From positions 1-64,000 of the forward strand of contig CANPYZ010000008.1 of NCBI GenBank assembly GCA_947589035.1: a DNA stretch of 64,000 nucleotides, read 5' to 3'. Both the position numbers and the translations under genes were made by a program. The stretch is from an uncultured Clostridia bacterium. GTDB lineage: Bacteria > Bacillota > Clostridia > Oscillospirales > Ruminococcaceae. A model generated the notes under the pieces. It saw nothing but the letters and a program-made list of their open reading frames with translations, searched no databases and was not told where the DNA came from. This document shows, piece by piece, positions 43,010 through 64,000 of this stretch (position 1 is its first letter; every line of letters starts with the position of its first letter).

Positions 43010-43018
43010 ACATGAACT

Positions 43019-43058
43019 AAGCAGAAATCTGAATTTAGGTTTCTGCTTGTTATTTTAG
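43019..43058 (+). terminator. lipoprotein gene terminator
   Basis: AAGCAGAAA (43019-43027) pairs with TTTCTGCTT (43040-43048), then GTTATTTTAG. Confidence 0.75.
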
Positions 43059-47343: not shown

Positions 47344-47376
47344 AAAAAGCCCTGCATGAACACATGCAGGGTTTTT
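47344..47376. terminator. bidirectional terminator at the end of the kinase gene and of the Tad-linked operon
   Basis: GCCCTGCATG (47349-47358) pairs with CATGCAGGG (47363-47371), flanked by A4 and T5. It is the only terminator seen for the 16-kb minus-strand operon. Confidence 0.88.
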
Positions 47377-47399: not shown

Positions 47400-49463
47400 T
47401 TATTTCTGAATCAGCAAATATTTCAGTTTCACCAAATCAAAAATATTGATGATGTCGTCTTTGCAAACATCAGCGGCTTTTTCACTGGTCAGCTTAGTCC
47501 CGTCATTCAACAAGAAACGCTGAAGCGTAATCGCATCAACTACGGTCAATACGCCGTCGCCGTTGCAGTCGCCGGCAAGCACTTCCGGTTCAGGGGGTGT
47601 GGGTGTACTCTGTGAAGCACTCGGCACGATAGACACATCTGCAAGAGCATAGGCAACATTTTCATTATAGCCGCCACTCCGGTTAAGCTTAATCCGCAAG
47701 ACGTTTGTATTGGAAACGTCAATCGTGTAAGGCGTGTTTTCCATATCTGATGCCAAAGAAACTTCATTGTATTTTTTATTGTCTAAATAAAATATCAACG
47801 TTCCGCCATAGTTTCCAGAATCATCCAAATGTCCGATAGTGAAACTAACAGAGTCCAAATTTTCTACATTGAAGCTAAGGGTTTGACTATTGTTTGCTTT
47901 CGTAAAAACAAGACCTTGATAGTAACCCTGTTCCATCATGTAAAATTCCGGTTCTTTCGCTTCAATATTCGGAATCCAGATACCTGATGTAGCTTCAAAA
48001 TTACTTTTCAGAAAATCATAGCCATCTGCATACTGCGGTACAGAATGCATTGTTGATGGCTGTTTTTCATCAACAGAAAATTCAGCAAATGCATAGCTAC
48101 TGTTTTCCTGGTAACCGCCACTTCTTTCTACAACAATTCTCAATACTTTAGCTTTGGATACATCCAGTGTGTATTCCTGCAAAGGCATCGTCCAGGAAAG
48201 TCCGACACTGTCAGCTTCCTGATTATCCAAATAAAACCTTACTGTTGCACCATAATCTCCCTTACCATCTACATGCCCTATTGTAAAACTGATAGACTGG
48301 ATATTTTCAACATTATAACACACAGAAGAATTAGCATTTGAATCACTGAACACAAGTCCCTGATAGTATGCTCTTCCATTCATGTAAAATTCAGGGCTGA
48401 CTGATTCTGGATCAGCTACCCAGATTCTGGAATAAGAATATCCACCATTCAGAAAGCTTTCTACTGTATCATGTTCGGCAATTTTGTATGTTTTGACAGG
48501 GGCATAATCGTCAACAGAAACATCTGCAAACGCATAGCTGCTGTTTTCCTGATAACCACCGCTTCTTTCAATTACAATACGCAGTGATTTTGCACTGGAC
48601 ACGTCCAATGTGTAATCAATCAAATTCATATTCCAATTCAAAGAAATTCGGTCATATTCTTTGTCATCTAAATAAATGACAGCATCCTCAGAATATGTTG
48701 ATGCATTATCCACATGCCCGATAGTGAAGGACAGAGTATTCACATTTTCCACATTGAAACTCACATAAGAATTAACATTTGTGTCATTGAAAATCAATCC
48801 CTGATAATATCCCCTGCCGTTCATGTAGAAATCCGGGTTTTTGGAATCCGTATTTCCTAAATGCATATTACTTGAACTAAAACCATGATTCAGAAAATCT
48901 TCTGCTGAATCATATTCCGGCGTTTTGGACTGTCGTTCCGGAGCAATCCCGTCAACAGTAACGTCTGCAAAGGCATAGCTGCCTTTTCCACTGTGTTCAA
49001 GCACAATCTGAAGAGAATCCACGCCGTTGAGATCAAGTTCATATTCCATTAAATTCATTGTCCAATGTAAAGAAAAGCTATCATATTCTTCCCCGTCAAG
49101 ATAAAATTTTGCTTTTGCTCCTCCAGTGCTTGTGTTGTCCGTATGTCCAACAGTAAACGAAAGCGTGTTCACTTCTGAAACGTCAAATGTCATTTGCGCA
49201 GTGCTTTCGCTGTTGTCAAACACAATCCCTTGATAATAGGTGTTTCCATTCATCTGGAAAGAATATTTCGAGCGAGTATTATACACTGTCATACCACTGG
49301 CTTCTGTAGCCGTACCAAGAAATTCTTCCGCACTTCCAGAAACTGCTTCTGCCGTCAATGCAATTCCGGCATTTTGCCAAAGATTTGGCGTTGCCGGACA
49401 CCAGCCCAATAAGGCTAAGGCACTGATGCCGGCGGTTGCTTTTTTCCATAATTGTTTCATCAT
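47400..49463 (-). CDS. Dockerin protein with four repeated beta-sandwich modules
   Basis: 687 residues. A signal peptide is followed by four repeats of about 140 residues at roughly 40-175, 180-330, 335-475 and 480-620. Each holds an FxMNGxxYYQGLVF strand, an LSFTIGHVD strand and a GGYQENSSYAFADVSVD-like end. The layout resembles NPCBM/CBM-like carbohydrate-binding modules, but I cannot assign a family. The C-terminal type I dockerin (about 628-687) has one good calcium loop (GDCNGDGVLTVVDAITLQ) and one degenerate loop (VCKDDIINIFDL). It should dock onto a cohesin on a scaffold or on the cell. Last gene of the operon, 17 bases after the Ig-like gene. Confidence 0.85.
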   Translation of the reverse strand: MMKQLWKKATAGISALALLGWCPATPNLWQNAGIALTAEAVSGSAEEFLGTATEASGMTVYNTRSKYSFQMNGNTYYQGIVFDNSESTAQMTFDVSEVNTLSFTVGHTDNTSTGGAKAKFYLDGEEYDSFSLHWTMNLMEYELDLNGVDSLQIVLEHSGKGSYAFADVTVDGIAPERQSKTPEYDSAEDFLNHGFSSSNMHLGNTDSKNPDFYMNGRGYYQGLIFNDTNVNSYVSFNVENVNTLSFTIGHVDNASTYSEDAVIYLDDKEYDRISLNWNMNLIDYTLDVSSAKSLRIVIERSGGYQENSSYAFADVSVDDYAPVKTYKIAEHDTVESFLNGGYSYSRIWVADPESVSPEFYMNGRAYYQGLVFSDSNANSSVCYNVENIQSISFTIGHVDGKGDYGATVRFYLDNQEADSVGLSWTMPLQEYTLDVSKAKVLRIVVERSGGYQENSSYAFAEFSVDEKQPSTMHSVPQYADGYDFLKSNFEATSGIWIPNIEAKEPEFYMMEQGYYQGLVFTKANNSQTLSFNVENLDSVSFTIGHLDDSGNYGGTLIFYLDNKKYNEVSLASDMENTPYTIDVSNTNVLRIKLNRSGGYNENVAYALADVSIVPSASQSTPTPPEPEVLAGDCNGDGVLTVVDAITLQRFLLNDGTKLTSEKAADVCKDDIINIFDLVKLKYLLIQK

Positions 49464-49480
49464 ATATTCCTCCTGAAAAA

Positions 49481-52400
49481 TTAATGATTAGATTTTTTGT
49501 TCCGCTTAATCATAAAGTAAACCAATACTGCACCTGAAAGAATCGCAATCACGATAAATAAAGCATACGCTTCAAAATTATCCTTGACTAAAATTCTGAA
49601 TTGGTTCACCACTAAAGGCTCGTTTTCACGTCCGGACGCATCTTTGCAAATGACTTTCAGCTGGTGATATTGGCTGGATAATCGGGGTTCGGCTTCAACA
49701 TTAAATTCAAATTCTCCGTCGCTGAAATCCGATTCCAATTCCGCACTTCCCCAATGCTGATAAGCGGTTTTTTCATCATCTAAATAAACTGAAACTTCCG
49801 AAAGTTTTAAATTATCATTTGCAGACATGTACACCGTCATCTGACCACCGTCAACCTGATACGTCTTCCCCGTTTCAAGATTGGCAATCATGGCTGTCGG
49901 AGGCGTTTTGTCTACGAAAAAGCGTACTTTTTCTTCTTTTCCGTCATAGGTATTTCTTGAATTATTGCCGGCTTTATCCGTTGAACTTAATTCAATGTTG
50001 TATGCACCGTCATCTTCAAAAATTTCCGGATGTATGCGGTAGGTGTACTTGTGCCATTTTTTCTCTTCCTTGGCAATTTCTTGCTCATAATCTTCATCTT
50101 CCGGTGAAATGACTTCCTCATTGTTTTTCATCAGGGCAATTTCTACATCATAGTCTTCATCTTGCTGTAAAACAATTTCTTGACTATTTTTAAACAGCGT
50201 GATAGCATACTGTTGTAAACGATTCGGGTTAATTTCAGAAATAATGACTTCTCCGGTATTCTGAACATATTGATTCAGCATAGGTTTAATTTTAGTAATA
50301 TCATATGTTGACCCGAAACGATTCACAGAAAATGTCATACTGTTTTTGTCAGCGTTTCCGGAATGTGAAATCCGTCCGGCTTTGTCTTTGACAAATACAG
50401 AGAATGTGTAAATATCATCAAAACTATTATTTTTATCTTTAGTCGGGTCAGACGGAAAATCATTGAATGTAATGGTTTTCCCGTAAACTTTCCCATTTTT
50501 GACGATTTTTTTAATTTCACCTGTCCATGTTCTGGATTCTTCAGATTTTGTCAGAGAAAAACTAATTTGGTCGTCAGTAATTTTCGGTTCAGATACAGTG
50601 ACATTCATGCCGCCAGTCAGCTGAATAGATACCTGACTGTCATCTAAATTAGCATCTTCATATTGAATCATCGGAGTAATTGTTTCCCCTTGCCCATAAG
50701 CCGTGAACGTCGTGTCACCATTGACAGAAATATTCAGTTCAGGGTCAGTGTTATCCACATAGAAATCTGTGTTGAACTCTTTTCCCGCATTTCCGGCTTC
50801 ATCAGTATAGCCAACATTAAGATGATATTTTGCATCTTCTGAAAAAGCAACTGTGGTTGTGTGCTGAGTTCCGCTTTCTTTCCATTCACTAACGGTTGTT
50901 GTTATTGGTCTTCCGTCTGCATCACCAGTTACTTTTATTCCGGAAGTAGCATTTTCTTTATTGAAATTCTTTTCATCAATAGTAATTGTCGCAATTCGTT
51001 CGCCTTTATAGTAATTTCCTTGCGGGTTAGTGTCTTTGTCAGAAAATTCTACTGTAATTTCAGGAATTGTCGCATCAATGGAAAAATCTGACGGAAGAAC
51101 AGTGCCTTCTGCATAATTGATTTCACTGCTTTTGTTTTCAGCAAGGTCAGTGCATTCAATACTGAGTGAATATGTTCCATCTTCTGAAAACGGTACATCT
51201 GCATACCAAAGCGTATTATCTCCATTGCCGGAACCTTCTGTCTGCTCCCAAATCACAGAAGGGGAATATTCCACGCCGTCTTTTTTCGCAATAATATTCA
51301 CATACTCTTTACTGAAATTCCGTTCAGAAATGTTGATTCTTGCTGTTCGTCCGCCACGGAACAAATCATTCTGCATCTGATTATTATCAAACGAAACAAG
51401 AATTTGCGGCGGAGTAATATCAATGCTTAAAGAAATCGTTTCTACAGAAGCATTCATGACATTATCCTGTGCATAAATTTCCAGAACAACATCATTGCTG
51501 TTGTTGAGTTCACTGCTGATAGTGACTTCGCCTTCCCATACCTGAAGTAAATCGCTATATTGCGGCATTGTATTGTCAAATGTGTATAACGTTTCGCTCT
51601 GGGTTTCCTGCCCCATATTCAACACACGATAAGTAATGGATTGTAATCCGGAATATGCATCATTCACGGACGGGTCTTCTACCCGAACAGAAACAGTGAC
51701 ATCACCGTTATAAATACCGCCTTCCGCTGGTTCTACCGTCATGGAAATATCCGGCGGCTGTATTTCACTGACCGGAAGACTATCATCAATGACTAATGCA
51801 TTTGTACTAAGATACCGGTCATTTCCTGCTGCATCAAGAATTTTAAGATAAACCATACAGCGTTCATTATTACTGAGTGAAAGTTCACTGAATGGCTTCC
51901 AATCCTGTAATTTTACAATTTCGTCTGCGGTCAATGCTGTTGTTGCTAACGATTTATAATATTCTACGCTTTGAATAGGAGAAGTAACATCCGTATATTC
52001 TGCAAGAATCTGAATGCTGGATTTCGACCAGAATCCGAAATATTGCTGATATACTACACCGTTCCATGTTTCTTCTCTGCCTTCTGCCGAAACTGCTGTA
52101 ATTGTTCCTTCTGGAACTGTCTGGTCAACAGTGAACGTTTCAGGTGCGATTGTGCCTTCACGAATGTTAATTTTTCCGGAAGTGTTACGAGCTTTATCCG
52201 TATAGGGACTAATTTCCAGCTGATATTTTCCATCAAAATATGCACCTTCTGCATTTACGCCGATTGTCACAGGAATGCTATATACAGCATCATCGCCATT
52301 TGCGGCTTTGGCTTTTTCTTCTTTCCAGCTGCCGAAATAATAGCCGCCATCTACTCCTTTTACTGAAATGCATTTCAATGCCTGTTCTTTATCAAAATGT

Positions 52401-55400
52401 TCTGCACGCTCTTTAAAATGAATGGTTGCCGTCCGTGCCTCTTTAAAATAATATGCTCCTTCAAATGCATTGCCTTTATTATTATCATAACTGATTTCAA
52501 TTTCAGGTGCAGTGCAGTCAATATCTATAGGGAAAGTTTCGTCGCCTTCGTTTCCGGCAAAATCTTCTGTATGAACATGCAAAATCAAATCACTTCTGTT
52601 GTAATCTTTAGGAATTGTGAATGTTAAAGATTGTTCATCATATGCTTTGTTTTTATCCTTTAATTCTGTTTTATCTTCATAGGGTGGTGAAATGATTGTT
52701 TCTTCTTTTTTATCAGAACCATTAATAAGAGGTAATTTTTCTTCACTGTTTTCAACCGTCAGCCAGCATTCAACCGTTTTAATTCCGGAATAGGGGAACT
52801 TGTCTTTGATGCTGAGCTTTACGGGAATGTCATCACGGTAATATGTATGCTTGTTTTCTCCTTCTCCGACGGTTACAGCTATAGCCTCAGGATTATCTGA
52901 ATCAATACCTAATTCAACATTACAGGAGGTAGTATCATAAATATACCCATTTGAACTAATGAAAAACTCATCATTCATTGATTCATCAACGAACCATGCA
53001 TAAACAATATTACCGTCTTTAATTTCAAAAGGTTTGCCACTTTCGCATTCTACCCATTCATCTTTAGGAATTTTATTTAACTCTGTCTTTGTTTTTGGAG
53101 GGCTTTCTTTTTTTCGAATATCCCAAAGATAATATCGGATTTTGACATCTTTTTTTCCAGATTCTTCTTTAATCGTAACTTTGAGTTTATCTTTATAATA
53201 TTTCCCGAAAGTAAGGAAATCTACCACTTTATCTTTAAAAGTGTCAAATTCTTCAATTGTTATAGAACCTACTGCTTTAATTGGCTCTATTTCAAATTCT
53301 GTTGATGTTTCTGGCGAAACATTCCCTGCCTTATCTTGATAATCACTTACTTCAATCTTGTATGGTTGTGTTCCTTCTTTTTGTGTTCCTTCTTTTTGTG
53401 TTCCTTCTTTAAGAAAATCAAGTTCCAAGATGTGCTTGTTTTTATTGTTTTCATCGACTTTCCAGTCTTCTGCCACTGTCCAGCCGAGAGAAGCTTTTTC
53501 CTTGTCAGACAAATGTCTATACCCTTCAAGAGTCAAATTTTGAAACTGTTCAGATAATTTTTTAGATCCATCCTGAATATGAATGCATTTTTCAGCAGAA
53601 TCTTTTGAAAAATAATGCTCTTCAATCGTTAAAACTACCCTGCGTTTGTCCTTGTATTTTTCTATATCATCTCTGAAAATTCTTTCACTTTTTTCGTCCT
53701 TATCGTTCAACATGTAATGTTCCAACGTAACAAGTGGTGTTACATTGTCTACAATAATCTTCTGGGGAAGAATGGTTTGTTCAGTTCCATTATTATACAA
53801 TATATGTACAAAATATTCCAGTTCACCCTCATAATTTGAAGGAATATTACTAATTGTATCTTTTAAATCTTTTTTCGAAATGATTTCGTTATTTTCAGCA
53901 GAAAAAATTTGTCTGTGTTCACTTTCTACTTCACCTATTTTGTACCATGCTTCTACACTTTTAATACCAGTAAAAACATTGCTTTCTACACGTTTGATAT
54001 GAATGTCGACTGGAATTTTACTATCTTTACAATAATACTTATCTTCTTTCTTCTCAGCAGAATTAAATTCAAATTGAACCGTACTTTTGTTATTTTCGTT
54101 CTGCTCTGAAGAAACGACATATCCGTCCGAACAAATATAAGTGTTAATTCCAGAAGAGTCTGTCAGACGAGCGTAAACAACAAAATATGTTTTTTCCGGT
54201 TTGAATGGGAATGTTCCGGTGTAAGGATTCCACTTGTCATCAAGATCCTCTAAATCCTCCCGTGAGAGAATTTTCACTTCGTCTTTAGTATCACCTTGCA
54301 TAATATAATATGCCATTTCCGGCTGGTCAGCATCTTCCGATGTAATGGAAACAGTCACTTCTGATCTGGCAAAAAATCCGAATGTCAGTGTACTCAGCAA
54401 ATTTATCCAGAAGTTTTCTTCAACTTGCATTTCACCTTTAGGTGCTTCTTTATCAATCACAAAGTCTGTAATATGAGTACTTCCTTCTTCGTAAGAAATT
54501 TCTGCTGATTGTCCAAGAGTGTTTTCATAGAAAAATTCCCAGCGGTAATAGCCTGTTTTGCTGAAAGTAATAAAAATAGTCATAACATCATAATTTTCTT
54601 TTTTAGAAATTTCTGGGTCAACCTGAATCATGGTTTCTTTTTCTTCATCTGAAATAACTTCCGTATTATTGCGATAAATATTAATATTTTTTACTATTTC
54701 TTCCTTCGCAGGCATACAATCCAGTTTATCTCTCACCTCAATAATCACTGTTCGGTCAAAGGAATACCGCCCTTCCACGGTTGCCTGATTTTTTTCTTCA
54801 GTGCTTTTTATGCCAGCTGAGACTTCCGGTGGTAATATAATCGTAAATGGTTCACTTTTCAACGTCAGCATTTGTCCATTTATGTCTTTGAGTTCTACAT
54901 AAACGGTAAGGGTTTCATTTTCTCCCTGGACAGTAAATTTTCTTGTATTAAGGTCAATATTTGTTTTTTCCGTGAACTCGCCGTTTTCTTTCTGAAGATA
55001 ATACTGATAGCTGTTGTATTGCTCGAAAATACTTTCGTCTTCTGCGGTAATCTGAAATCTTGCACTATTGACATAATAATTCTGGTCATTAAGTCCACTC
55101 GAAAGAAGTTGAAGTGAAATTTGCTTTTCTTCTTCAAATTCAGCTGTTACCTGAACATTTCCAGAAAGATTGTTCAAATAAAACAAATAATTTCCAGTGC
55201 CGTCTGATTTCATTTCTTCCGAAGAATACGTTTTTTCTTTCAGTGCATCGCCGGAAATAGTAACCGAAAGAAGACGGTGATTTTCTTTCGGGGAAACATA
55301 GCCGATAATTTTATCACCTTCAGCAGCACTGGTAACATACTCGTCAGAGCCTTCCCGCTGGAAAAAAATACTTCCGGCTTCGTCATCACGGGTTCCGTCT

Positions 55401-56158
55401 AACAAATACTGTTTCGGAGAAAAAATGACTTCTATTTTGTGATTCTGATTTTTGTCTAAAGGTCTTTCAAGCGTTTCCACATGGAGATATTCGGGAATGC
55501 CATCAATGATTAACTGGTCAATCCAGTAACTTTCTTCTGCTTGTAAAACAAGAACTTGTTCTTCATCAGGAGCAGCTTCAAATTTGGAAAGATTTTCTTT
55601 TGTTTCAGTAGCAGTTTTATCTTTAATGATTGCTGTTCCATGTTGCGTGTCATTGGTCACTTCCGTCACATAATAGGGAGAACCTTCAATTTTTACGGGA
55701 ATATTGCCGTTCTCGTCAGCAACAGCTTTTGAAATTGGCAACCCTTCCCATGAATAAGAAGTATTCCGAATATTCGCATGTTCAAGCAAAACATTATTGC
55801 CCATCTGAACTTTATTTAATTCATAATGTTTGTCTGCCTTATCCGTAACAGTAACAGTCATGTTGATGGAATTTTCGTCGCCACTGGTAATGTCCACAGA
55901 AAATACATCCTGCAATTCTTCCGGAATATCAGGAAAAACTTTATATTCCTGATTGATAACAACCGGTTCTGTCGTTTCTTCCGGCAAGGTGGAAATTTCT
56001 TCTTCTGTTTCTTCTTCCGGAATGTATGTACTGATTTCTTCTGAAGATTCTGTTTCAGTGAGTTGTTCCGTAAATCCATAGACCGGAGTCATACTGAATG
56101 TCAGTGCGGCGGAAAGTACGCCGGCAAGAATGCGTTCAATAACGGTTTTTTTCTTCAT
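49481..56158 (-). CDS. Giant Ig-like repeat surface protein with a C-terminal membrane anchor
   Basis: 2225 residues. Signal peptide at about 1-30 (VIERILAGVLSAALTFSMTP), then an acidic Thr/Glu segment. A very long series of Ig-like repeats follows, many with the pattern PPEISVSFDNN, a YYFKEARTATIHF-type strand and a SEDGTYSLSIECTD-type strand. Near the C-terminus come one membrane helix (YALFIVIAILSGAVLVYFMI) and a basic tail (KRNKKSNH). There is no LPXTG motif. Three tandem KEGTQ copies (DNA 53367-53411) mark a slippage-prone site. An adhesive or stalk-like role is inferred. It lies in the Tad/kinase operon, 29 bases after the 142-residue gene. Confidence 0.85.
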   Translation of the reverse strand: MKKKTVIERILAGVLSAALTFSMTPVYGFTEQLTETESSEEISTYIPEEETEEEISTLPEETTEPVVINQEYKVFPDIPEELQDVFSVDITSGDENSINMTVTVTDKADKHYELNKVQMGNNVLLEHANIRNTSYSWEGLPISKAVADENGNIPVKIEGSPYYVTEVTNDTQHGTAIIKDKTATETKENLSKFEAAPDEEQVLVLQAEESYWIDQLIIDGIPEYLHVETLERPLDKNQNHKIEVIFSPKQYLLDGTRDDEAGSIFFQREGSDEYVTSAAEGDKIIGYVSPKENHRLLSVTISGDALKEKTYSSEEMKSDGTGNYLFYLNNLSGNVQVTAEFEEEKQISLQLLSSGLNDQNYYVNSARFQITAEDESIFEQYNSYQYYLQKENGEFTEKTNIDLNTRKFTVQGENETLTVYVELKDINGQMLTLKSEPFTIILPPEVSAGIKSTEEKNQATVEGRYSFDRTVIIEVRDKLDCMPAKEEIVKNINIYRNNTEVISDEEKETMIQVDPEISKKENYDVMTIFITFSKTGYYRWEFFYENTLGQSAEISYEEGSTHITDFVIDKEAPKGEMQVEENFWINLLSTLTFGFFARSEVTVSITSEDADQPEMAYYIMQGDTKDEVKILSREDLEDLDDKWNPYTGTFPFKPEKTYFVVYARLTDSSGINTYICSDGYVVSSEQNENNKSTVQFEFNSAEKKEDKYYCKDSKIPVDIHIKRVESNVFTGIKSVEAWYKIGEVESEHRQIFSAENNEIISKKDLKDTISNIPSNYEGELEYFVHILYNNGTEQTILPQKIIVDNVTPLVTLEHYMLNDKDEKSERIFRDDIEKYKDKRRVVLTIEEHYFSKDSAEKCIHIQDGSKKLSEQFQNLTLEGYRHLSDKEKASLGWTVAEDWKVDENNKNKHILELDFLKEGTQKEGTQKEGTQPYKIEVSDYQDKAGNVSPETSTEFEIEPIKAVGSITIEEFDTFKDKVVDFLTFGKYYKDKLKVTIKEESGKKDVKIRYYLWDIRKKESPPKTKTELNKIPKDEWVECESGKPFEIKDGNIVYAWFVDESMNDEFFISSNGYIYDTTSCNVELGIDSDNPEAIAVTVGEGENKHTYYRDDIPVKLSIKDKFPYSGIKTVECWLTVENSEEKLPLINGSDKKEETIISPPYEDKTELKDKNKAYDEQSLTFTIPKDYNRSDLILHVHTEDFAGNEGDETFPIDIDCTAPEIEISYDNNKGNAFEGAYYFKEARTATIHFKERAEHFDKEQALKCISVKGVDGGYYFGSWKEEKAKAANGDDAVYSIPVTIGVNAEGAYFDGKYQLEISPYTDKARNTSGKINIREGTIAPETFTVDQTVPEGTITAVSAEGREETWNGVVYQQYFGFWSKSSIQILAEYTDVTSPIQSVEYYKSLATTALTADEIVKLQDWKPFSELSLSNNERCMVYLKILDAAGNDRYLSTNALVIDDSLPVSEIQPPDISMTVEPAEGGIYNGDVTVSVRVEDPSVNDAYSGLQSITYRVLNMGQETQSETLYTFDNTMPQYSDLLQVWEGEVTISSELNNSNDVVLEIYAQDNVMNASVETISLSIDITPPQILVSFDNNQMQNDLFRGGRTARINISERNFSKEYVNIIAKKDGVEYSPSVIWEQTEGSGNGDNTLWYADVPFSEDGTYSLSIECTDLAENKSSEINYAEGTVLPSDFSIDATIPEITVEFSDKDTNPQGNYYKGERIATITIDEKNFNKENATSGIKVTGDADGRPITTTVSEWKESGTQHTTTVAFSEDAKYHLNVGYTDEAGNAGKEFNTDFYVDNTDPELNISVNGDTTFTAYGQGETITPMIQYEDANLDDSQVSIQLTGGMNVTVSEPKITDDQISFSLTKSEESRTWTGEIKKIVKNGKVYGKTITFNDFPSDPTKDKNNSFDDIYTFSVFVKDKAGRISHSGNADKNSMTFSVNRFGSTYDITKIKPMLNQYVQNTGEVIISEINPNRLQQYAITLFKNSQEIVLQQDEDYDVEIALMKNNEEVISPEDEDYEQEIAKEEKKWHKYTYRIHPEIFEDDGAYNIELSSTDKAGNNSRNTYDGKEEKVRFFVDKTPPTAMIANLETGKTYQVDGGQMTVYMSANDNLKLSEVSVYLDDEKTAYQHWGSAELESDFSDGEFEFNVEAEPRLSSQYHQLKVICKDASGRENEPLVVNQFRILVKDNFEAYALFIVIAILSGAVLVYFMIKRNKKSNH
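53367..53411. repeat. three tandem copies of a 15-bp repeat
   Basis: The unit encodes KEGTQ in the giant Ig-like protein. A unit of 15 bp keeps the frame when copies are gained or lost. Confidence 0.8.
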
Positions 56159-56187
56159 AAAAGTTCCTCCTTGGTGAAAAATGCAAA

Positions 56188-56616
56188 TTATTGAATAATT
56201 TCCTGGCTGCTGGTGAAACTTAATTCTTCTATAATAGAAAATTCAGTTTCGGTTAATTTTTCTGAAACAGGCTTTGACTGTTCAGATTTTTGCTTTTTGG
56301 TTATCGATTTCAATGCTGCTGATTCCGGCGAAAGTTTCGTCGTGGCAAGTTTCTGCTGTGTTCCCGTCAATGAACTGGAAATCAATTCAGAAGAAAGTAA
56401 ACTTTCACTCGTGCCGTAAGCTTTTTCTTCCGGAATTTCTTCTGTATTTTTTTTCTGGGCTTCTGCAATGAATTTCTGCGCATCTCGTCCGGTAAGTTCG
56501 TTGAATAATTTCGGAATATGAAACACAAAAAATAAAACTACTGCCGTCAGAAATAAAATTACCGCAATGATGATACAAATTAAAGATAAATTCTGTAAAA
56601 TTTCTACGTTATTCAT
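56188..56616 (-). CDS. small single-helix membrane protein of unknown function
   Basis: 142 residues. One membrane segment at about 11-33 (LICIIIAVILFLTAVVLFFV), then a polar Ser/Thr/Glu/Lys-rich cytoplasmic tail with several Ser/Thr clusters (SESLLSSELISSSLTGTQ). It sits three bases after the Ser/Thr kinase gene and before the giant Ig-like gene, so the tail is a candidate kinase substrate. I do not recognise a family. Confidence 0.75.
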   Translation of the reverse strand: MNNVEILQNLSLICIIIAVILFLTAVVLFFVFHIPKLFNELTGRDAQKFIAEAQKKNTEEIPEEKAYGTSESLLSSELISSSLTGTQQKLATTKLSPESAALKSITKKQKSEQSKPVSEKLTETEFSIIEELSFTSSQEIIQ

Positions 56617-56619
56617 TGA

Positions 56620-59232
56620 TTACTCTCCTGCATTCTGACAAGCTGCCTCAACGGCTTTTTTTGTTTTGGATATTTTTTCTTCTATGGCTGATTTTTCAGC
56701 ATGTATCGGATGTGTTTTCTCATAATTTTCAACATTGATACTTTTCAGAGTATCTTCTATTTTCTGATAAAGCTGCTGTAAGCGATTCGCAGAATAATCC
56801 TTCGTGCTGGTTCTATAGTGTTTGTCTAATGCATTACGGAAATTTTTAGCATAATCTTTAAGAATATCACAGGCATCTTCCAAAGATCTCAGGCGGAGAA
56901 TTTCTTCTTTGTCTCCATTTGCACTGACTTTATCCACTAAATCTTCTATGCCTTTAAATAATGTTAAACACACTTCTTCAGTATCGCCGTCTTTTTCGAT
57001 ATCCATAGTGGCTGAATAGATTTCAGAATAAGTTTCTGCAAGTTCTACATTTTCTTTGTTAGCATAACTTCCGGCGTTCTCTGTAACATGTTCAAAATAT
57101 TTGACTGCTTCTTTTCGGCGGGCATTTTCATTTGGACTATCATAATAATACCAGCACAATTCGCCGATTTCGTAACAAATTTCAGCGTAATCTTCGGGAT
57201 TCTCTTCTAAAGCAATTTGGTTATCTGTAAGTAGTTTGTCTATTTCTTCCTGTTCGTCCTGAGAAAACACGGGAATATTGCTATCATTTTCCTTAAATGT
57301 ATTGATTATTCCGAGATAGGCTTTTGCTTCTCCAGCTTTATTGGTAACTTCCATAGCTTGTTTATAAAGGGAAAGTTTTTCTTGATAAATTTTTAAATAA
57401 TCCGAACTTTTCGGATCAATTGTGAGCTGTTCTGCCTCATTCAGTAAATTCTGGTAACTCCCTTTATCTGTCGCTTTTTCCTGATTCTGGCAGGCTTCTT
57501 CAATAATTTCCAGGGTTCCAGGCATTTCTTTTTCTATGGCTAATTTTTCAACATATACCGGATGACTTTTATCATAATTTTCAACGTTGATACTTTGCAA
57601 GATATTTTCTATTTTCAGATAAAGCCGCTGTAAATGCTCCGCAGAAGGATCTTCTAAAGTGGAATCTTTATATTTTATATTTTTTAATGTCCTGTAAAAA
57701 TCCGTAGCATATTGTCGGAGAGACAGACGAGCACTATCTAAAGCCTTCAACCGGAGAATATCTCGTTTACTTTCATCTGCACCAACTTTATCAACTAACT
57801 CTTCTGTACTTTCCAACAATTGTAAATAAAAATTTTCATCTTGTCCTTCTTTAATAAATCTATTCATGCTTTCACTAATTGAACCGAGTTTATCATAAAC
57901 TTCTGCCAGTTCTAATTTTTCTGGGTCAACCTGAGCTTTTTCAGCGCAAGCTTCGACACTTTCAAAATATTTGACGGCTTCTTTTTTGTCTGGTGCATCA
58001 TAATAATACCAGTATAATTCGCCGAGTTCATAACAAATTTCAGCGTAATTTTGGGGATTTTCTTCTAAAACGGCTTTATGATTCAGGAGCAGTTTGACGA
58101 TTTCGTTTGACTCATCCTGAGAAAATACTGGAATACTACCGTCATTTTCTCTAAATGTATTGATTACACCGAGATAGGCTTCTGCTTCTCCGGCTTTATT
58201 GGGAACTTCAATAGCCTGTTCATAAAGAGAAAGCTTTTCCTGATAAACCTGTAAATAATCCGGACTTTCTGGATTGATTGTGAGCTGTTCTGCACTGTCC
58301 AGCAATTCCTGATAATTGTCTGTGGCTAATGCTTTTGCCCGTAAATTCAGCATTACCCCACAAACGCCTAAAATCAGCGACAACGCAAAACTGGAAACAA
58401 ATAAACCTATTTGCAGACGCTTTCTTTTCCGGCTGCCTTTGTCAATTTCTTTGTAACGCTCTAAATAATATAATAATTCTTCACAGGATTGATACCGGTC
58501 AGCGGGATTTTTCCGAGTGCATTTCTGGACAATGTCATCTAAACCGGAAGTAAATTCAGGATTAACTTTTCTGATTGATGTATCCGGAACGAAATTTTTC
58601 TGTGGGTCAATTCCCGTTAATAATGCATACATGGTCATACCTAAACAAAAAATATCCGTTCTTGCATCTGTACGCCCATAACCGCCGTACTGCTCCGGAG
58701 CGGCAAAACCTGCCGTTCCTAAACCAGTAGTTTCTCCGGAATCATATTCATATTTCTTTGCCGTCCCGAAATCAATAATCGTAATTTCTCCGTTTTTCTT
58801 CAACATGACATTGGACGGCTTCATGTCACGATAAACAATATTTTTTGAATGCAGATAACCAAGCACTTCACAAAGCTGTTTTGCCCAGTCAACAACTTTT
58901 TCTTCCGGCTGTGCGCCCTTTCTGGAAAAAATTTTATCCAGCGAAACGCCTTCAATATAATCCATGACAATAATAAAGCTATCATCATTATCAATCACAT
59001 CAGCAATTTCAGGAAGTTTGGGGTGTTTGACTTCTTTCAGCGTTTCAATTTCGGCAATTAAATTCTGTCTGACAACGTTATAATCATTTCTGCCGTCTTT
59101 CCGAACTTCTTTGACCGCCCAGATTTTTCCGGAACGTTCAACAGTCGCACGGTAAACAATACTCATTCCGCCCCGTCCGATTTCATCAAGAATTTTATAC
59201 CGGTGATCAATCACCATATTTGTTGAAAGCAT
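56620..59232 (-). CDS. Membrane Ser/Thr protein kinase with a duplicated helical ectodomain
   Basis: 870 residues. Kinase domain at about 1-265: glycine loop IGRGGMSIVYRA, VKEVRK lysine, YRDMKPSNVML catalytic loop, IDFGTAKKY and AAPEQYGG. A basic stretch (GSRKRKR) leads into one membrane helix at about 277-297. Two copies of a helical TPR-like unit of about 280 residues follow (each starts with a LLxxAEQLTIxPxSxDYLxxYQ pattern and ends with INVENYxKxHPxxxEK). No PASTA repeats are present. A PP2C phosphatase and an FHA protein are encoded just upstream in the same operon, forming a complete phosphothreonine module. Confidence 0.93.
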   Translation of the reverse strand: MLSTNMVIDHRYKILDEIGRGGMSIVYRATVERSGKIWAVKEVRKDGRNDYNVVRQNLIAEIETLKEVKHPKLPEIADVIDNDDSFIIVMDYIEGVSLDKIFSRKGAQPEEKVVDWAKQLCEVLGYLHSKNIVYRDMKPSNVMLKKNGEITIIDFGTAKKYEYDSGETTGLGTAGFAAPEQYGGYGRTDARTDIFCLGMTMYALLTGIDPQKNFVPDTSIRKVNPEFTSGLDDIVQKCTRKNPADRYQSCEELLYYLERYKEIDKGSRKRKRLQIGLFVSSFALSLILGVCGVMLNLRAKALATDNYQELLDSAEQLTINPESPDYLQVYQEKLSLYEQAIEVPNKAGEAEAYLGVINTFRENDGSIPVFSQDESNEIVKLLLNHKAVLEENPQNYAEICYELGELYWYYYDAPDKKEAVKYFESVEACAEKAQVDPEKLELAEVYDKLGSISESMNRFIKEGQDENFYLQLLESTEELVDKVGADESKRDILRLKALDSARLSLRQYATDFYRTLKNIKYKDSTLEDPSAEHLQRLYLKIENILQSINVENYDKSHPVYVEKLAIEKEMPGTLEIIEEACQNQEKATDKGSYQNLLNEAEQLTIDPKSSDYLKIYQEKLSLYKQAMEVTNKAGEAKAYLGIINTFKENDSNIPVFSQDEQEEIDKLLTDNQIALEENPEDYAEICYEIGELCWYYYDSPNENARRKEAVKYFEHVTENAGSYANKENVELAETYSEIYSATMDIEKDGDTEEVCLTLFKGIEDLVDKVSANGDKEEILRLRSLEDACDILKDYAKNFRNALDKHYRTSTKDYSANRLQQLYQKIEDTLKSINVENYEKTHPIHAEKSAIEEKISKTKKAVEAACQNAGE

Positions 59233-59252
59233 ACACTCTCCACCTTTCTGAA

Positions 59253-60020
59253 TTAACAGGTTCTGATGGTAATCACAGAAATATTATCATGTTCCTGCCG
59301 TTGTTTATTCAATTCAATTAAAGTGCCTATATTTTCTTTCATCTGTGCAGAAGTTTTCACTTTCTGGGCGTTCAGATGCTGATAAATTTCTTCACTGGAG
59401 ATTTCATGCCGGAAACCGTCACTGCAAAGCATATATACAGCATCTTTTTTTGTTTCTCCGAAAAACATGTCCGGAATTACTTGTTCAGAAGCCCCGATAC
59501 ACTGCAATAAAACACTTCTGCGGGGGTCAGTCCTGGCTTGTTCTTCTGTAATGATTCCTAATTCTGTTTCTCTTGCCACAAGTGTCTGGTCTTTCGTTAA
59601 AACTTTCGCTTGCTCAGTTAATTCATAAACTCTTGAATCACCAATATTAATAATATAATATTTTGAATCTGTCAATAATAATGCGGCAAGTGTCGTGCCT
59701 AAATCAATCCCCTGATTTGCACCGTAATTTTTAATTTTCTGATTATAAATTACTGCAATATCACACCATTCATTCTGAATCACTGTTTCAGTAATTTCCG
59801 TTTTGCATAATTCCGGAAGACGCTGTGTTGTCCACGTCCGGAACGCATCAATTACCGTTGCGCTGGCAATTTCCCCTTTTGAAAGTCCCCCCATACCGTC
59901 ACACAACACTGCAACAACCATTTTCCCAAGACGAGTATTCACGGAAATTACACTGTAACTGTCCTGATTGGTCTTTTTCGAAATGCCAATATCCGTTGAG
60001 GCTGAAATTAAAAAATCCAT
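59253..60020 (-). CDS. PP2C-family protein phosphatase
   Basis: 255 residues. Metal-dependent Ser/Thr phosphatase with VLCDGMGGLSKGE, a STDIGISKKTNQDSY start, NIGDSRVYEL, MLCSDGFRHEI and EHDNISVITI. No membrane segment, so cytoplasmic. It presumably reverses phosphorylation by the kinase encoded 20 bases downstream. GGTG lies before the ATG. Confidence 0.94.
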   Translation of the reverse strand: MDFLISASTDIGISKKTNQDSYSVISVNTRLGKMVVAVLCDGMGGLSKGEIASATVIDAFRTWTTQRLPELCKTEITETVIQNEWCDIAVIYNQKIKNYGANQGIDLGTTLAALLLTDSKYYIINIGDSRVYELTEQAKVLTKDQTLVARETELGIITEEQARTDPRRSVLLQCIGASEQVIPDMFFGETKKDAVYMLCSDGFRHEISSEEIYQHLNAQKVKTSAQMKENIGTLIELNKQRQEHDNISVITIRTC

Positions 60021-60033
60021 ATTCTTTCACCTG

Positions 60034-61668
60034 TCAGACAATTCTAAATTCAAATTCTTCATCAGCAAGGCGAATTTTGTCTCTGTCAGACAAAGGTAAT
60101 TCCATGCCAGGCATGAGTTCTCTTTCATTCAGGCAAGTAGTATTCGTTGCTGTCACCCGTGAAAGGAAATATTCATCATTGCGCCGGATAATTTCTGCAT
60201 GACGGCGGCTGATATGCGTATTATCGTTCAACGAATAATCTTTTTCCGGAAGTCCTCTGCCAATACACAAAACATTATTCTGAATAAAGAAATGCGAATG
60301 GTCTTTCAACCGAATCAGGCAAGCCGTTTTTTGCGTTCGTGAAGGCTGATTCAGAACAGTTGTTTCCTGAGAAGCGTTTTGGGACAATAAAACCGTTGTT
60401 TCAGGAACGGCTGAGGGCTGAGTCAGCAAAACCGTTTCTTCATTATTTAAATTAGGAACAGAAGCAGAATTAACTAAAACTGTCGTTTCCTGTGGAGGTT
60501 GCTGAAATTGGTTCGCCTGAATCTGATTTGCTTCATACGGAGAAACAGCATTTTTTAATACTGTTGTCCCCTGATATATTGGTTTCTGCGGTTTCTGTGG
60601 AATTTCCATCGGAATCTGCGGATTTTTCAATAGCGTTGTTTCCTGATATTTTGGCTGAACCGGAACAGGAGTATTCATTTCCGGTTGTTTCATCATCATT
60701 GGCATTGCATTTTCAGAGATTCCTTTTGGCGGAGAAACATACCCTGCCGGAGGTTTACTCTTCCATGGTGTAGAATTATTCCGGATTCCGGCAATTCCTC
60801 CCTGATAACCACCAGAAGGAGCAAATGCCTTTTTTTCGTATTTCTTTTCTGGCTTCTTTTCGGGTCTTTTTTCCGGCTTCTTCTCAAAAGAAGATTTTTT
60901 CGGCTTAGGTGGCTTATTAGTAGAAAAAAGCCTGCCGAGAAATCCGCCTTTTTGTTCTGGCTGAACAGGAATAGGCGGAGGAGCAGGAACGGGGAAAGAA
61001 ATTTCTGGTTTTGGTTGCGAAATTGTAATTTCTTTGGGTTCTTCCACACGAAAATCCGACAATGCGCCGGGTACGCTGGATTCACCGGAATGTAAAGCTT
61101 CACTTTTCTGTTCAGCCTGCTGCATAGCGGCTTTCATGTTGCTTAACGAAAAACCGCTTTCATTACTGGTAATATTCCAGATATGATTAAAATAACTCAC
61201 TTCATTGATATTTAAATTCACATAGCTGTTCTGCACAACAGAACGGAAAAATTCATACGGTCTGTAAGCCTGTGTGACATCTTTCAGGGCTATGCAAAGA
61301 AATGCAATATGATGGTCAATTGCATTGATATATACATAATCCATGTCTAACAAAATCTGATTCACATCAATCATGTATTCATCAAATTGTTCAATCGTAT
61401 CAATTAAATTTAACAACATCTGCCGGAAATCTTCTTGTGAAATATGCTTTCCGGTATACTCCCGTAAAGTAACTTTTCCGGTAATGTCAAACAGCATTTT
61501 GTAATAAATGCCGTTCATTTCTTCAAATGTAATCGGCGCAAGACCAATATTTTCCTGTTGATTACTGTTAATCATCATCAGACTGACACGGTCAATTTTA
61601 ACTTCCGAATCAGTCAGTTCATACACAGCATAAATATTACTGCCTTTCTGGATTCTGTTCAATACCAT
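60034..61668 (-). CDS. FHA-domain protein with a DUF6382-like N-terminus and repeated TTVL motifs
   Basis: 544 residues. Residues 1 to about 165 resemble the DUF6382 domain found with FHA in Clostridia. Residues about 190-330 are a Pro/Lys-rich linker. Between about 335 and 450 there are six short motifs of the type ETTVL (YQETTLL, YQGTTVL, QETTVL, EETVLL, PETTVL, QETTVL). The FHA domain at about 450-544 shows CIGRG, ISRRHAEI and TTCLN, which bind phosphothreonine. Threonines in ETT motifs are phosphorylated in the FHA proteins GarA and OdhI. It is cotranscribed with the PP2C and kinase genes. Confidence 0.88.
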   Translation of the reverse strand: MVLNRIQKGSNIYAVYELTDSEVKIDRVSLMMINSNQQENIGLAPITFEEMNGIYYKMLFDITGKVTLREYTGKHISQEDFRQMLLNLIDTIEQFDEYMIDVNQILLDMDYVYINAIDHHIAFLCIALKDVTQAYRPYEFFRSVVQNSYVNLNINEVSYFNHIWNITSNESGFSLSNMKAAMQQAEQKSEALHSGESSVPGALSDFRVEEPKEITISQPKPEISFPVPAPPPIPVQPEQKGGFLGRLFSTNKPPKPKKSSFEKKPEKRPEKKPEKKYEKKAFAPSGGYQGGIAGIRNNSTPWKSKPPAGYVSPPKGISENAMPMMMKQPEMNTPVPVQPKYQETTLLKNPQIPMEIPQKPQKPIYQGTTVLKNAVSPYEANQIQANQFQQPPQETTVLVNSASVPNLNNEETVLLTQPSAVPETTVLLSQNASQETTVLNQPSRTQKTACLIRLKDHSHFFIQNNVLCIGRGLPEKDYSLNDNTHISRRHAEIIRRNDEYFLSRVTATNTTCLNERELMPGMELPLSDRDKIRLADEEFEFRIV

Positions 61669-61696
61669 AAATTCACCTGCTTTTTTAAATTTAAAT

Positions 61697-63010
61697 TTAC
61701 GAATAAGTAGTCACTCCGATAAATTCCGGAATGCCGTTTTCTTCTGCTAATGCATAACCACCCTGTGTAAATGCCTGCAAATCATCAAATTTCGGTTTGA
61801 TTAACACTATTCCCTGCTCGTCAATACAACCCCATTTTCCATTTTCACAATATGGCGCATAGCCCAGACAGAAAGAATTTGCATCCTGATAGCAAAATTC
61901 TGTTAAAATTTCCCCTGTATGTGAAACAAAACCCCATTTTCCATTACGTTTCACCGCTGCCGGCTCTTCGGAAGCAAATAATTTCGCATCATCAAAGCCT
62001 TCTGAAATCTGTTTCCCTTCAGAATCATACAAATAATACTGGTCATTCTGTTTCGCAAAAAATACTTGATAAGTCGAACAAAAACCGTATTCGTCCATTA
62101 AAATTTCATCAAACTGAAATGGTGTAACCAATTCAAAATCTGTATTAATCACTGCCCATTTCCCATTCTGTTTCACCGGCGCAAGACCATTCGCAAAACA
62201 ACCCGCTTCTTCATATTCAAAATGATATTCTTTCATGTCTTTGTCTAAATAACCATAAACATCATTGATTTTCGCCGGAGCATAATTATCATGAAATGTC
62301 CCTAAATATTCTGCTTCATGGTCTGGAACAAGTTTCCGGTAGCCTTCTTCATTGATATAAAACCATTCGTTTTCTTCATAAATGGGAATAACTCCTTGCC
62401 CAGGAATGCCAATTTCTTCATAAACCGGCTGATAACTTGTTTCTAAATTCGTATTCATAATGCCTTTTTTATCTTGATAAGAAATGACTGCATAGCCTGT
62501 CTGTGTATCATCAGAATAAACAAATGGCGTAATTTCATCATAACTCATATTTTCCACGGAATATTGCCCTTTGATTTCATAAATACGGGAATCAATTTCT
62601 GTCTGGTCTTCCAAATTTTGCTGTGCCTGTATCAACACATCATACGCTTCCTGCAAACTTCCTGTTTCCATATAATAATCAGCTAATAATAAATACGGCT
62701 CTTTCTGAAGTTTATCCGCTGAAATGGCATTCTGACAAGCTTTAATCCAGCCGTTTTCATTGCCTAAATTATCATACAGACCAACAATTTTCATGGCAAC
62801 GTCATAATCTTCCGGCTTCACCTGCAAGGCAAGTTCATATTCACTGACCGCATCAATGTAAATTCTTTTCGCCATGTATGCTTCCGCTTTTTCAATATGT
62901 GACTGGTAAGATTCTGTAATACTGCTGTAATATCCCAGCACATTCTTCCATGAAATCACCAGCATAAATAAAATTACGCCCATAATTAAATACGGCATAA
63001 GCCTGCTCAT
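61697..63010 (-). CDS. Membrane-anchored TPR and WG-repeat protein
   Basis: About 437 residues from ATG 63010 (AGGAAG upstream); a GTG at 63019 is an alternative. One N-terminal membrane helix (about 5-27), TPR-like helices at about 35-150 (IDAVSEYELALQVKPEDYDV and ACQNAISADKLQKEPYLLLA), then WG repeats (KQNGKWAVINTDFELVTPFQ, KRNGKWGFVSHTGEILTEF, ENGKWGCIDEQGIVLIKPKF). WG repeats are beta-rich and often extracytoplasmic; their role is unclear. It lies between the prepilin peptidase and FHA genes, with short gaps on both sides. Confidence 0.85.
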   Translation of the reverse strand: MSRLMPYLIMGVILFMLVISWKNVLGYYSSITESYQSHIEKAEAYMAKRIYIDAVSEYELALQVKPEDYDVAMKIVGLYDNLGNENGWIKACQNAISADKLQKEPYLLLADYYMETGSLQEAYDVLIQAQQNLEDQTEIDSRIYEIKGQYSVENMSYDEITPFVYSDDTQTGYAVISYQDKKGIMNTNLETSYQPVYEEIGIPGQGVIPIYEENEWFYINEEGYRKLVPDHEAEYLGTFHDNYAPAKINDVYGYLDKDMKEYHFEYEEAGCFANGLAPVKQNGKWAVINTDFELVTPFQFDEILMDEYGFCSTYQVFFAKQNDQYYLYDSEGKQISEGFDDAKLFASEEPAAVKRNGKWGFVSHTGEILTEFCYQDANSFCLGYAPYCENGKWGCIDEQGIVLIKPKFDDLQAFTQGGYALAEENGIPEFIGVTTYS

Positions 63011-63025
63011 ATTCTTCACTTCCTG

Positions 63026-63700
63026 TTATGATAGTAAAAGATAATAAATATTCAGCCCAATAAACGCAAATGGTCCTAAGGCAAGTGTGGACTTCATTTT
63101 TGCTTTTTTTGTCAATAATAAAATAATCGCTCCGAATGCTGCTAAAAATACCGTGTAAAACAAAATATTCATCATGGGAATTATCCCAAAATAATACCCC
63201 ACTAAGGCAAATAATTTTACATCTCCTGCCCCTATTCCCCCTCTGGAAATTAACCGGCAAATTAAAATAATTCCTCCACCCAGCAACATTCCTGAAAATG
63301 ACCCCAGTATTAGCGAAATGATTTCTTCCGGCTGATGTGCCATTTCCGCAAAAATTCCTACTGTTCTTGCTCCTAATAAAATTAGAAAAATCAGATTCGG
63401 CATTTTCTTGACATGAAAATCTATCCATGAACTAATTAAAATACAATCCCAGAATAAAATATATTGCGGCAACTGGACTAAATTTAAATGTTTCTGCTGA
63501 TAAACACATAATGCAAGAATGAAAAATGCTGAATAAATCAACAATACCGGAACAAATTGCAAAGGCTTTTCTTGCAGATGGCGTTTCATTTCCGGAAAGG
63601 AAAATGTTTCGCTTTTTCGATAACAATTCTGGTATTCTGTCGCCAGCAGTGAACCAGCGACAGAAATCACAAACAGAAAAATGACATAGACAATCATCAT
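63026..63700 (-). CDS. Prepilin peptidase (A24 family, TadV/CpaA-like)
   Basis: 224 residues, polytopic. The two catalytic aspartates of A24 peptidases are visible in SSWIDFHVKKMPN and in GAGDVKLFALVGYYFG. It cleaves leader peptides of type IV/Flp pilins and pseudopilins at the inner face of the membrane. It lacks the N-terminal methyltransferase domain, or has only a remnant. It begins three bases after the TadE-like gene. No pilin or Tad ATPase gene is in the window; they probably lie beyond the right edge. Confidence 0.88.
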   Translation of the reverse strand: MMIVYVIFLFVISVAGSLLATEYQNCYRKSETFSFPEMKRHLQEKPLQFVPVLLIYSAFFILALCVYQQKHLNLVQLPQYILFWDCILISSWIDFHVKKMPNLIFLILLGARTVGIFAEMAHQPEEIISLILGSFSGMLLGGGIILICRLISRGGIGAGDVKLFALVGYYFGIIPMMNILFYTVFLAAFGAIILLLTKKAKMKSTLALGPFAFIGLNIYYLLLS

Positions 63701-63703
63701 GGT

Positions 63704-64000
63704 TTAATACCCCAACGCACTTAGTGAAAGTAAATTACTTCCATCAGGATGAACCCATGCGGCTGTAGAAGCAACCTGCCGGAAACAAATAGACGTTTTC
63801 ACAAACCCTAAAGTATATTTTTCCAAATTTAACCGATAGCTGATTTGCAATTTTACAGAACGTTTGTCCGTCAGGCATTGTGAACCGTAAAATTCAATAT
63901 CGGAAATTCCTGTATTTTCATAATATTTTTCAATATTTTCTTTATTCCCCGGAGAAAGATATTTCGGCATGAGTTTTTCACAAATCAGCGAAATCACTAA
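63704..64000 (-). CDS. C-terminal part of a TadE-like pseudopilin (partial)
   Basis: 97 or more residues, open to the window edge, so the start is missing; the codon at 63997 is probably internal. The visible part is beta-rich with two Cys (FYGSQCLTDKRSV and KTSICFRQVAS). It resembles the exported domain of TadE/TadF-like proteins only in general; the call rests mostly on its position before a prepilin peptidase. Confidence 0.5.
   Translation of the reverse strand, partial: LVISLICEKLMPKYLSPGNKENIEKYYENTGISDIEFYGSQCLTDKRSVKLQISYRLNLEKYTLGFVKTSICFRQVASTAAWVHPDGSNLLSLSALGY

What the first reader, a model, noticed from the sequence alone, without database searches (positions are those of the whole stretch)
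47400..64000. A 16-kb operon joining Tad-pilus processing, phosphothreonine signalling and giant surface proteins
Nine genes on one strand have gaps of 3-30 bases and a single terminator at the end: TadE-like, prepilin peptidase, TPR/WG protein, FHA protein, PP2C, Ser/Thr kinase, a Ser/Thr-rich membrane protein, a 2225-residue Ig-like protein and a dockerin protein. Tad pili, kinases and cellulosomal proteins are each known; their grouping in one transcript suggests one machine in which phosphorylation controls assembly or display of a surface fibre that carries carbohydrate-binding dockerin proteins. This is an inference from gene order.
Basis: partly seen in the sequence, partly recalled or inferred. 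Interest (0 to 1): 0.76.

Follow-up and report, generated by a model that had tools for sequence, protein, structure and literature searches.

The report
Tad pilus operon with phosphothreonine switch
A gut Ruminococcus carries one long run of genes that builds a Tad-type pilus and ends in a kinase-phosphatase-reader block with a giant surface protein; the same five-gene block, in the same order, serves a different secretion machine (type VII, subtype e) in a relative, which suggests a portable phosphorylation switch for surface machines.

Summary
In detail: nine same-strand genes (gaps 3-29 nt) end at a strong terminator. Beyond the window the run continues to flp-tadC-tadB-tadA-tadZ: 19 genes, about 27.5 kb, a whole Tad locus. 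The grouping is conserved: of 132 DUF6382-FHA genes in 391 class-level genomes, 63 lie within 25 kb of the Tad marker DUF5702, all 63 on its strand and downstream of it. The block FHA-PP2C-kinase-small membrane protein-Ig giant matches, in order, the accessory genes J-F-D-H-I of type VII secretion subtype e, found intact in a congener; the window's genome has neither WXG100 nor EssC. A T-x-[VIL]-L motif recurs in the small protein's tail (39 copies in 15 proteins, 2.7 expected; absent from the window's own) and in the FHA linker (seven copies in the window's). Best model: the kinase phosphorylates these threonines, the FHA domain reads them, PP2C erases them, and this gates the Tad machine. 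Phosphorylation is inferred, not shown. The dockerin gene is not conserved at this position and is probably a local addition, so the 'fibre displaying dockerin proteins' is not supported.

The parts
63704..64000 (-). TadE-like protein, 261 aa in full (continues beyond the window to C8:64489)
   Evidence: L006:705-1490; matches the TadE2 profile in Tad loci of other families
63026..63700 (-). A24 prepilin peptidase, 224 aa
   Evidence: Pfam PF01478, E 2.6e-9
61697..63019 (-). TPR + WG-repeat protein, 440 aa, N-terminal membrane anchor
   Evidence: Pfam WG_beta_rep E 2.4e-34; present in 11 of 42 Tad loci read
60034..61668 (-). DUF6382-linker-FHA protein, 544 aa (TseJ-like); linker holds seven T-x-[VIL]-L matches (QETTLLK, QGTTVLK, QETTVLV, EETVLLT, PETTVLL, ETTVLLS, QETTVLN)
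   Evidence: Pfam PF19909 E 7.5e-14 and PF00498 E 8.6e-11; motif count
59253..60020 (-). PP2C-type Ser/Thr phosphatase, 255 aa (TseF-like)
   Evidence: Pfam PF13672 E 1.3e-9; NCBIfam NF033484 E 5.8e-49, below its cut-off; DGMGG and HDNISV motifs present
56620..59232 (-). transmembrane Ser/Thr kinase, 870 aa (TseD-like), ectodomain duplicated in tandem
   Evidence: Pfam PF00069 E 1.5e-50; ectodomain matched by Tad, T7SSe and free-standing homologues; duplication
56188..56616 (-). small single-pass membrane protein, 142 aa, Ser/Thr-rich cytoplasmic tail (TseH-like; TseK not excluded)
   Evidence: alignment with Tad and T7SSe homologues; profile search
49481..56158 (-). Ig-like giant, 2225 aa, signal peptide, C-terminal transmembrane segment, no LPXTG motif (TseI-like)
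   Evidence: BLASTP to the T7SSe giant in L113: 27% over 951 aa, E 8e-69; to Tad-locus giants E 4e-125 and 6e-138
47400..49463 (-). secreted protein with NPCBM repeats and a type I dockerin, 687 aa; last gene of the run, probably a local addition
   Evidence: Pfam PF08305 E 7.1e-20 (3 stretches), PF00404 E 6e-7; no full-length homologue in 61 genomes of the family
47350..47371 (-). intrinsic terminator hairpin

Best explanation
This is a complete Tad (type IVb-like) pilus operon of a Ruminococcus to which a five-gene phosphothreonine block is joined: DUF6382-FHA reader, PP2C eraser, transmembrane kinase, small membrane protein with a cytoplasmic tail, and a wall-length Ig-like giant. Shown: the gene order, its conservation in Tad loci of at least five families, the same five genes in the same order in a type VII secretion (subtype e) locus of a congener, and the lack of the type VII core in the window's genome. 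Inferred: the kinase senses something through its helical-repeat ectodomain and phosphorylates threonines of T-x-[VIL]-L sites (pThr with Leu at +3) in the tail of the small membrane protein and/or the FHA linker; the FHA domain binds these, which brings the DUF6382-FHA protein to, or releases it from, the membrane platform and so switches Tad pilus assembly; PP2C resets it; the Ig giant spans the wall beside the pilus as a guide, adhesin or receptor. In the window's genus the sites seem to have moved from the small protein's tail (no T-x-[VIL]-L; TTKL instead) to the FHA linker (seven matches in the window). The dockerin protein probably just shares the transcript.
For: Whole Tad locus upstream on the same strand. 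63 of 63 DUF6382-DUF5702 neighbours on the same strand and in the same order; 42 of 51 loci read carry two or more tad core genes, of which 13 have a kinase and 14 a PP2C in the stretch read. Whole block with Tad genes in L023/L087, L027/L088, L055/L089, L106 and, up to the contig end, L077. Same block in order J-F-D-H-I in L113/L116 with EssC, two WXG100 proteins and a ubiquitin-like protein; published T7SSe parts list PMC11217815. In the own genome no WXG100, and no EssC beyond FtsK-like and FHA-domain matches. Motif: 39 copies in 15 small-protein tails, shuffle mean 2.7, maximum 9 of 1000; 25 in 9 block FHA linkers, mean 0.7, maximum 4; 30 in 14 block linkers, mean 1.5, maximum 7 of 500, when all are counted. 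The pThr-contact Ser of the FHA domain is kept in 17 of 22 kinase loci and 10 of 31 kinase-less loci (Fisher p 0.002; relatedness not corrected for). Precedents: in Agrobacterium T6SS, PpkA phosphorylates the membrane protein TssL and Fha binds it (PMC3953482); GarA is phosphorylated on an ETTS motif outside its FHA domain and binds itself (PMC5448819).
Against: No phosphorylation, binding or transcript data. Many Clostridia Tad loci have the FHA gene but no kinase nearby (31 proteins), so the kinase is not needed for every Tad system; 22 of those 31 linkers still carry at least one motif (28 copies against 6.4 expected), so mere presence of the motif does not track the kinase (Fisher p 0.46), only its multiplication does. 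The window's own small membrane protein lacks the motif. PP2C-kinase-small protein(-Ig) blocks also stand alone, without tad or T7SS genes in the stretch read (L121-L123, L126), so the block's partner need not be the Tad machine. The shuffle control ignores tandem duplication and descent, and the looser motif was chosen after looking at the tails.
Confidence: 0.6

Rival explanations
1. Ordinary neighbour effect: an independent signalling operon for general envelope homeostasis (PrkC/Stp-like) that merely sits downstream of a Tad locus, with no working link.
For: Free-standing PP2C-kinase-small protein(-Ig) blocks exist; PP2C and kinase are of common families.
Against: Strict strand and order in 63 of 63 DUF5702-DUF6382 neighbours; block-bearing Tad kinases form one set spread over at least five families; gaps of 3-29 nt.
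Confidence: 0.15
2. The block controls secretion or anchoring of the Ig giant itself, and the Tad apparatus serves as a type II-like exporter for surface proteins rather than as a pilus.
For: The giant is a frequent partner of kinase plus small protein in Tad, T7SS and free-standing loci; Tad belongs to the type II/IV machinery (general knowledge).
Against: The giant has its own Sec-type signal peptide and membrane anchor and needs no exporter; flp, prepilin peptidase and three TadE/G-like proteins are all kept.
Confidence: 0.12
3. One reading: phosphorylation controls display of dockerin-bearing carbohydrate-binding proteins on the pilus, linking pilus and cellulosome.
For: Dockerin/NPCBM gene 17 nt after the Ig gene, before the only strong terminator; the genome has a frame with at least eight cohesin matches.
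Against: No dockerin gene follows the giant in L106, L087, L088 or L089; 91 dockerin matches genome-wide; no full-length homologue in 61 genomes of the family; no cohesin found in the pilus or Ig proteins.
Confidence: 0.06
4. The block is a remnant of a lost T7SSe: the core (EssC, WXG100) was deleted and the regulators survive next to the Tad locus by accident.
For: Same five genes in the same order as T7SSe; no core in the genome.
Against: All five genes are open and kinase and phosphatase keep their catalytic motifs; the Tad-block set is spread over several families.
Confidence: 0.06

Closest known systems
Type VII secretion system subtype e accessory genes TseJ-F-D-H-I (Garrett et al. 2024, PMC11217815)
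   Same: Five genes in the same order, homologous by profile or BLAST to a T7SSe locus of the same genus (L113/L116): DUF6382-FHA, PP2C, transmembrane kinase, single-pass small protein, Ig-like giant with C-terminal anchor
   Different: No TseC ATPase, WXG100 or ubiquitin-like protein; joined to tad genes instead. The main-text passages read mention whole Tad loci only next to T7SSg and T7SSh.
Tad (Flp) pilus
   Same: TadZ, TadA, TadB, TadC, Flp, TadE/G-like proteins, A24 peptidase in one run
   Different: Adds WG-repeat protein, FHA reader, phosphatase, kinase, small membrane protein, Ig giant; the TadG-like protein is a 1380-aa DUF5702 giant
Threonine phosphorylation pathway of type VI secretion (PpkA-PppA-Fha; TssL in Agrobacterium, PMC3953482)
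   Same: Membrane kinase, PP2C phosphatase, FHA reader, and a membrane protein as phospho-target
   Different: Another machine, unrelated membrane protein; here the motif is multiplied and also lies in the FHA protein's own linker
FHA domains in Myxococcus Kil (PMC8460266) and in class III CpaF (PMC12019362)
   Same: FHA domains tied to a Tad-type apparatus
   Different: FHA fused to the ATPase or in other proteins; the passages read do not report the DUF6382-FHA/PP2C/kinase/small protein/Ig block
GarA/OdhI (PMC5448819)
   Same: ETT motif outside the FHA domain as phosphorylation site, read by the protein's own FHA domain
   Different: Small soluble metabolic regulator with one site; here 2-7 sites in a long linker behind DUF6382

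Membership tests
Tad pilus | TadA-type ATPase | tested here: met
   PF00437 E 2e-55 at C8:72499-73377
Tad pilus | TadB and TadC platform proteins | tested here: met
   TadC PF00482 E 3e-8; TadB by homology to TadB/TadC profiles in other loci, no Pfam hit of its own
Tad pilus | Flp pilin and prepilin peptidase | tested here: met
   Flp1_like E 1.3e-5, below Pfam cut-off; Peptidase_A24 E 2.6e-9
Tad pilus | TadZ with atypical receiver domain | tested here: met
   PF21194 E 2.3e-10
Type VII secretion subtype e | EssC/TseC ATPase and WXG100 proteins | tested here: not met
   0 WXG100 matches; best TseC match is FtsK-like over residues 676-908 only, the rest are FHA-domain matches; genome 95.9% complete
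Type VII secretion subtype e | accessory genes J-F-D-H-I | tested here: met
   same order in L113. Published Tse sequences themselves not compared; small protein could be H or K
Type VI secretion threonine phosphorylation pathway | kinase + PP2C + FHA encoded with T6SS genes | tested here: not met
   trio present but encoded with tad genes; no T6SS search elsewhere in the genome was made
Active Ser/Thr kinase | Lys of VxK, catalytic-loop Asp, DFG | tested here: met
   AVKEV, YRDMKPSN, IDFG in the 870-aa protein; activity itself not testable here
pThr-binding FHA domain | conserved Arg, Ser, Asn | tested here: met
   IGR, ISRRH and ATNTT present
Cellulosome component | type I dockerin | tested here: met
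   PF00404 E 6e-7 in 47400-49463; applies to this protein only

The most novel reading that the evidence does not exclude
The five 'T7SSe' genes would then not be type VII genes proper.
Probability: 0.4. Interest if true: 0.8.

Novelty: new variant of a known kind. Interest (0 to 1): 0.64.

Why it matters
Five proteins recently listed as components of type VII secretion subtype e occur, in this genome at least, without any type VII core and next to a Tad pilus. That separates their role from WXG100 export, bears on the proposal that the Ig giant is a substrate conduit, and gives a concrete sequence (T-x-[VIL]-L) at which to test phosphothreonine control of Tad pili, for which no study turned up in the library searched.

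Tried and rejected
DUF6382 fold: AlphaFold2 with two sequences failed (mean pLDDT 37), so no fold search was run. Profile comparison gives a weak lead to a degenerate kinase fold: DUF6382 against the kinase profile 17.7% probability, E 0.0014, over the catalytic-loop region; the known pseudokinase EssB against the same kinase profile scores only 4.6%, unrelated controls below 0.6%; best PDB matches are TP53RK kinases at E 1.6. Not used as evidence; two of the four EssB rows were wrong and were corrected. Presence of the motif as a marker of a local kinase: rejected (p 0.46). A strict TT[VIL][LIV] pattern was tried first; the looser T-x-[VIL]-L was chosen after seeing the tails, so the counts are partly post hoc. 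Two regions asked for did not exist. The search for related loci with the FHA protein gave only one relative. The 347-aa ORF upstream of tadZ has no family match and was not followed.

Full report
What is there. Pfam and NCBIfam confirm A24 peptidase, TPR/WG, DUF6382-FHA, PP2C, Ser/Thr kinase, Ig-like repeats, NPCBM and dockerin. Promoter-like matches are no more frequent than in shuffled sequence. The contig goes on beyond the window, and there the same run continues with TadE, a 1380-aa TadG/DUF5702 protein, another TadE, three small membrane ORFs, Flp, TadC, TadB, TadA and TadZ: 19 genes over about 27.5 kb, with one gap over 30 nt. That 125-nt gap after flp folds into a 20-bp hairpin (z -4.3) without a U-tract, which looks like an RNA-stabilising or processing element rather than an end.

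Which organism. The only named relative found is a Ruminococcus MAG (L086, 52% identity in the FHA protein). The window's genome has 91 dockerin matches and 11 cohesin matches, at least eight of them in one 1952-aa frame: a cellulosome-bearing Ruminococcus.

Conservation. A profile search for DUF6382 in 391 genomes of the class gave 132 places; the Tad-associated DUF5702 was sought in the same genomes (the list was cut at the end, so counts are lower bounds). 63 of the 132 lie within 25 kb of a DUF5702 match, and all 63 are on its strand and downstream of it. Of 51 loci read in detail, 42 hold two or more tad core genes; most of the rest are cut by contig ends or are type VII-like loci. A kinase lies in 13 and a PP2C in 14 of the 42. 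The whole block, FHA-PP2C-kinase-small membrane protein(-small protein)-Ig giant, is with tad genes in L023/L087, L027/L088, L055/L089, L077 (to the contig end) and L106, that is in the window's genus and four other families. A tree of kinase domains puts the block-bearing Tad kinases in one supported set of nine rows (96/88; two of the nine are truncated Tad kinases from the same genus on long branches).

The type VII link. In G614, of the same genus, L113/L116 hold an EssC-type ATPase with FHA domain, two WXG100 proteins and a ubiquitin-like protein, followed by DUF6382-FHA, PP2C, kinase, small membrane protein and Ig giant. This matches the parts list published for type VII secretion subtype e (PMC11217815), where they are called J, F, D, H and I. 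In the window the same five follow each other in the same order. The giants align over 951 residues at 27% (E 8e-69); the kinase ectodomains align too (E 2e-20); the small proteins share the membrane segment, an LTG motif after it, and a conserved C-terminal end. The window's genome has no WXG100 and no EssC. G614 also has pieces of its own Tad locus with PP2C and kinase (L111, L112). Free-standing PP2C-kinase-small protein(-Ig) blocks occur in one more family (L121-L123, L126), and L124 is another T7SS with the set. Whether the small protein is H or K of the published list cannot be settled without those sequences.

The motif. The small protein's tail in T7SSe (L113) carries five tandem DPNATTVLSTAQTV-like repeats. 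The same T-x-[VIL]-L core recurs in other tails: 39 copies in 15 tails, shuffle mean 2.7, maximum 9 in 1000. It recurs also in the linker of the FHA protein: 25 copies in nine block linkers, mean 0.7, maximum 4; the window has seven. A threonine with leucine at +3 is the kind of site some FHA domains prefer (general knowledge). FHA linkers in loci without a local kinase mostly carry one copy (28 in 31 proteins, 6.4 expected), so the motif belongs to the FHA family at large and is multiplied in the block. In the FHA domain itself, the phosphate-contact serine is present in 17 of 22 loci with kinase and 10 of 31 without (p 0.002); descent is not corrected for, so this is a hint. The pattern was widened after looking at the tails, which weakens the counts somewhat.

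How it may work. Inferred: the kinase reads an outside signal by its helical-repeat ectodomain, phosphorylates the motif threonines, the FHA domain binds them in cis or on the membrane tail, and the DUF6382-FHA protein is thereby placed at or kept from the Tad platform; PP2C reverses this. The nearest tested precedent is Agrobacterium T6SS, where PpkA phosphorylates TssL and Fha binds the phosphothreonine (PMC3953482); GarA shows the in-cis version with an ETTS motif (PMC5448819). FHA domains are already known near Tad-type systems, in Myxococcus Kil and in class III CpaF, so a phosphothreonine link to Tad is not unheard of; the full block and its sharing with T7SSe were not found in the papers searched.

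The dockerin gene. It follows the Ig gene by 17 nt and precedes the terminator, so it is probably in the transcript. But no dockerin gene follows the giant in L106, L087, L088 or L089, and no full-length relative was found in 61 genomes of the family, only dockerin or short partial matches. It is most likely a local addition.

Limits. 'Operon' is a strong inference from spacing, not a measured transcript.

Noticed in passing
window 56672-58282 (-): The kinase ectodomain is a tandem duplication: both halves match the single ectodomain of the congener's kinase, and 300-nt and 128-nt stretches repeat at about 855-nt spacing with 79-82% identity.
   Followed up: partly
L006:7207-7331 (C8:70206-70330), - strand: Very strong hairpin (20 bp, -46.9 kcal/mol, z -4.3) directly after flp, no U-tract; possible pilin mRNA stabiliser or processing site.
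   Followed up: partly
window 42047-43042 (+): 320-aa ORF ending in a truncated cohesin domain; the cohesin match runs across two stop codons, so it looks like a broken scaffoldin-type gene.
   Followed up: partly
G000:C7:59608-63552: 1952-aa frame with at least eight cohesin matches, the likely scaffoldin of this genome.
   Followed up: no
L107:9073-17042 and L108:7481-10005: Two congeners carry, after the Tad locus, another set of PP2C, FHA and (in L107) kinase genes of a different kind, in place of the small protein and Ig giant.
   Followed up: no
L120 (G232:C3:44800-64700): Two DUF6382-FHA genes in tandem before PP2C-kinase-small protein, about 10 kb from a Tad locus; the small protein's tail has eight T-x-[VIL]-L copies.
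   Followed up: partly
window 56188-56616 and homologues: The small membrane protein ends in a conserved motif, roughly [FY]-x-[SH]-[ST]-x-[ED]-[IL]-[IV] (SFTSSQEIIQ in the window, YLHTNDIIL and YVHSDEIV elsewhere), perhaps a second docking or phosphorylation site.
   Followed up: partly
window 61129-61668 (-), DUF6382 domain: Weak profile similarity of DUF6382 to protein kinases (better than the known pseudokinase EssB gives in the same test), so it may be a degenerate kinase fold.
   Followed up: partly
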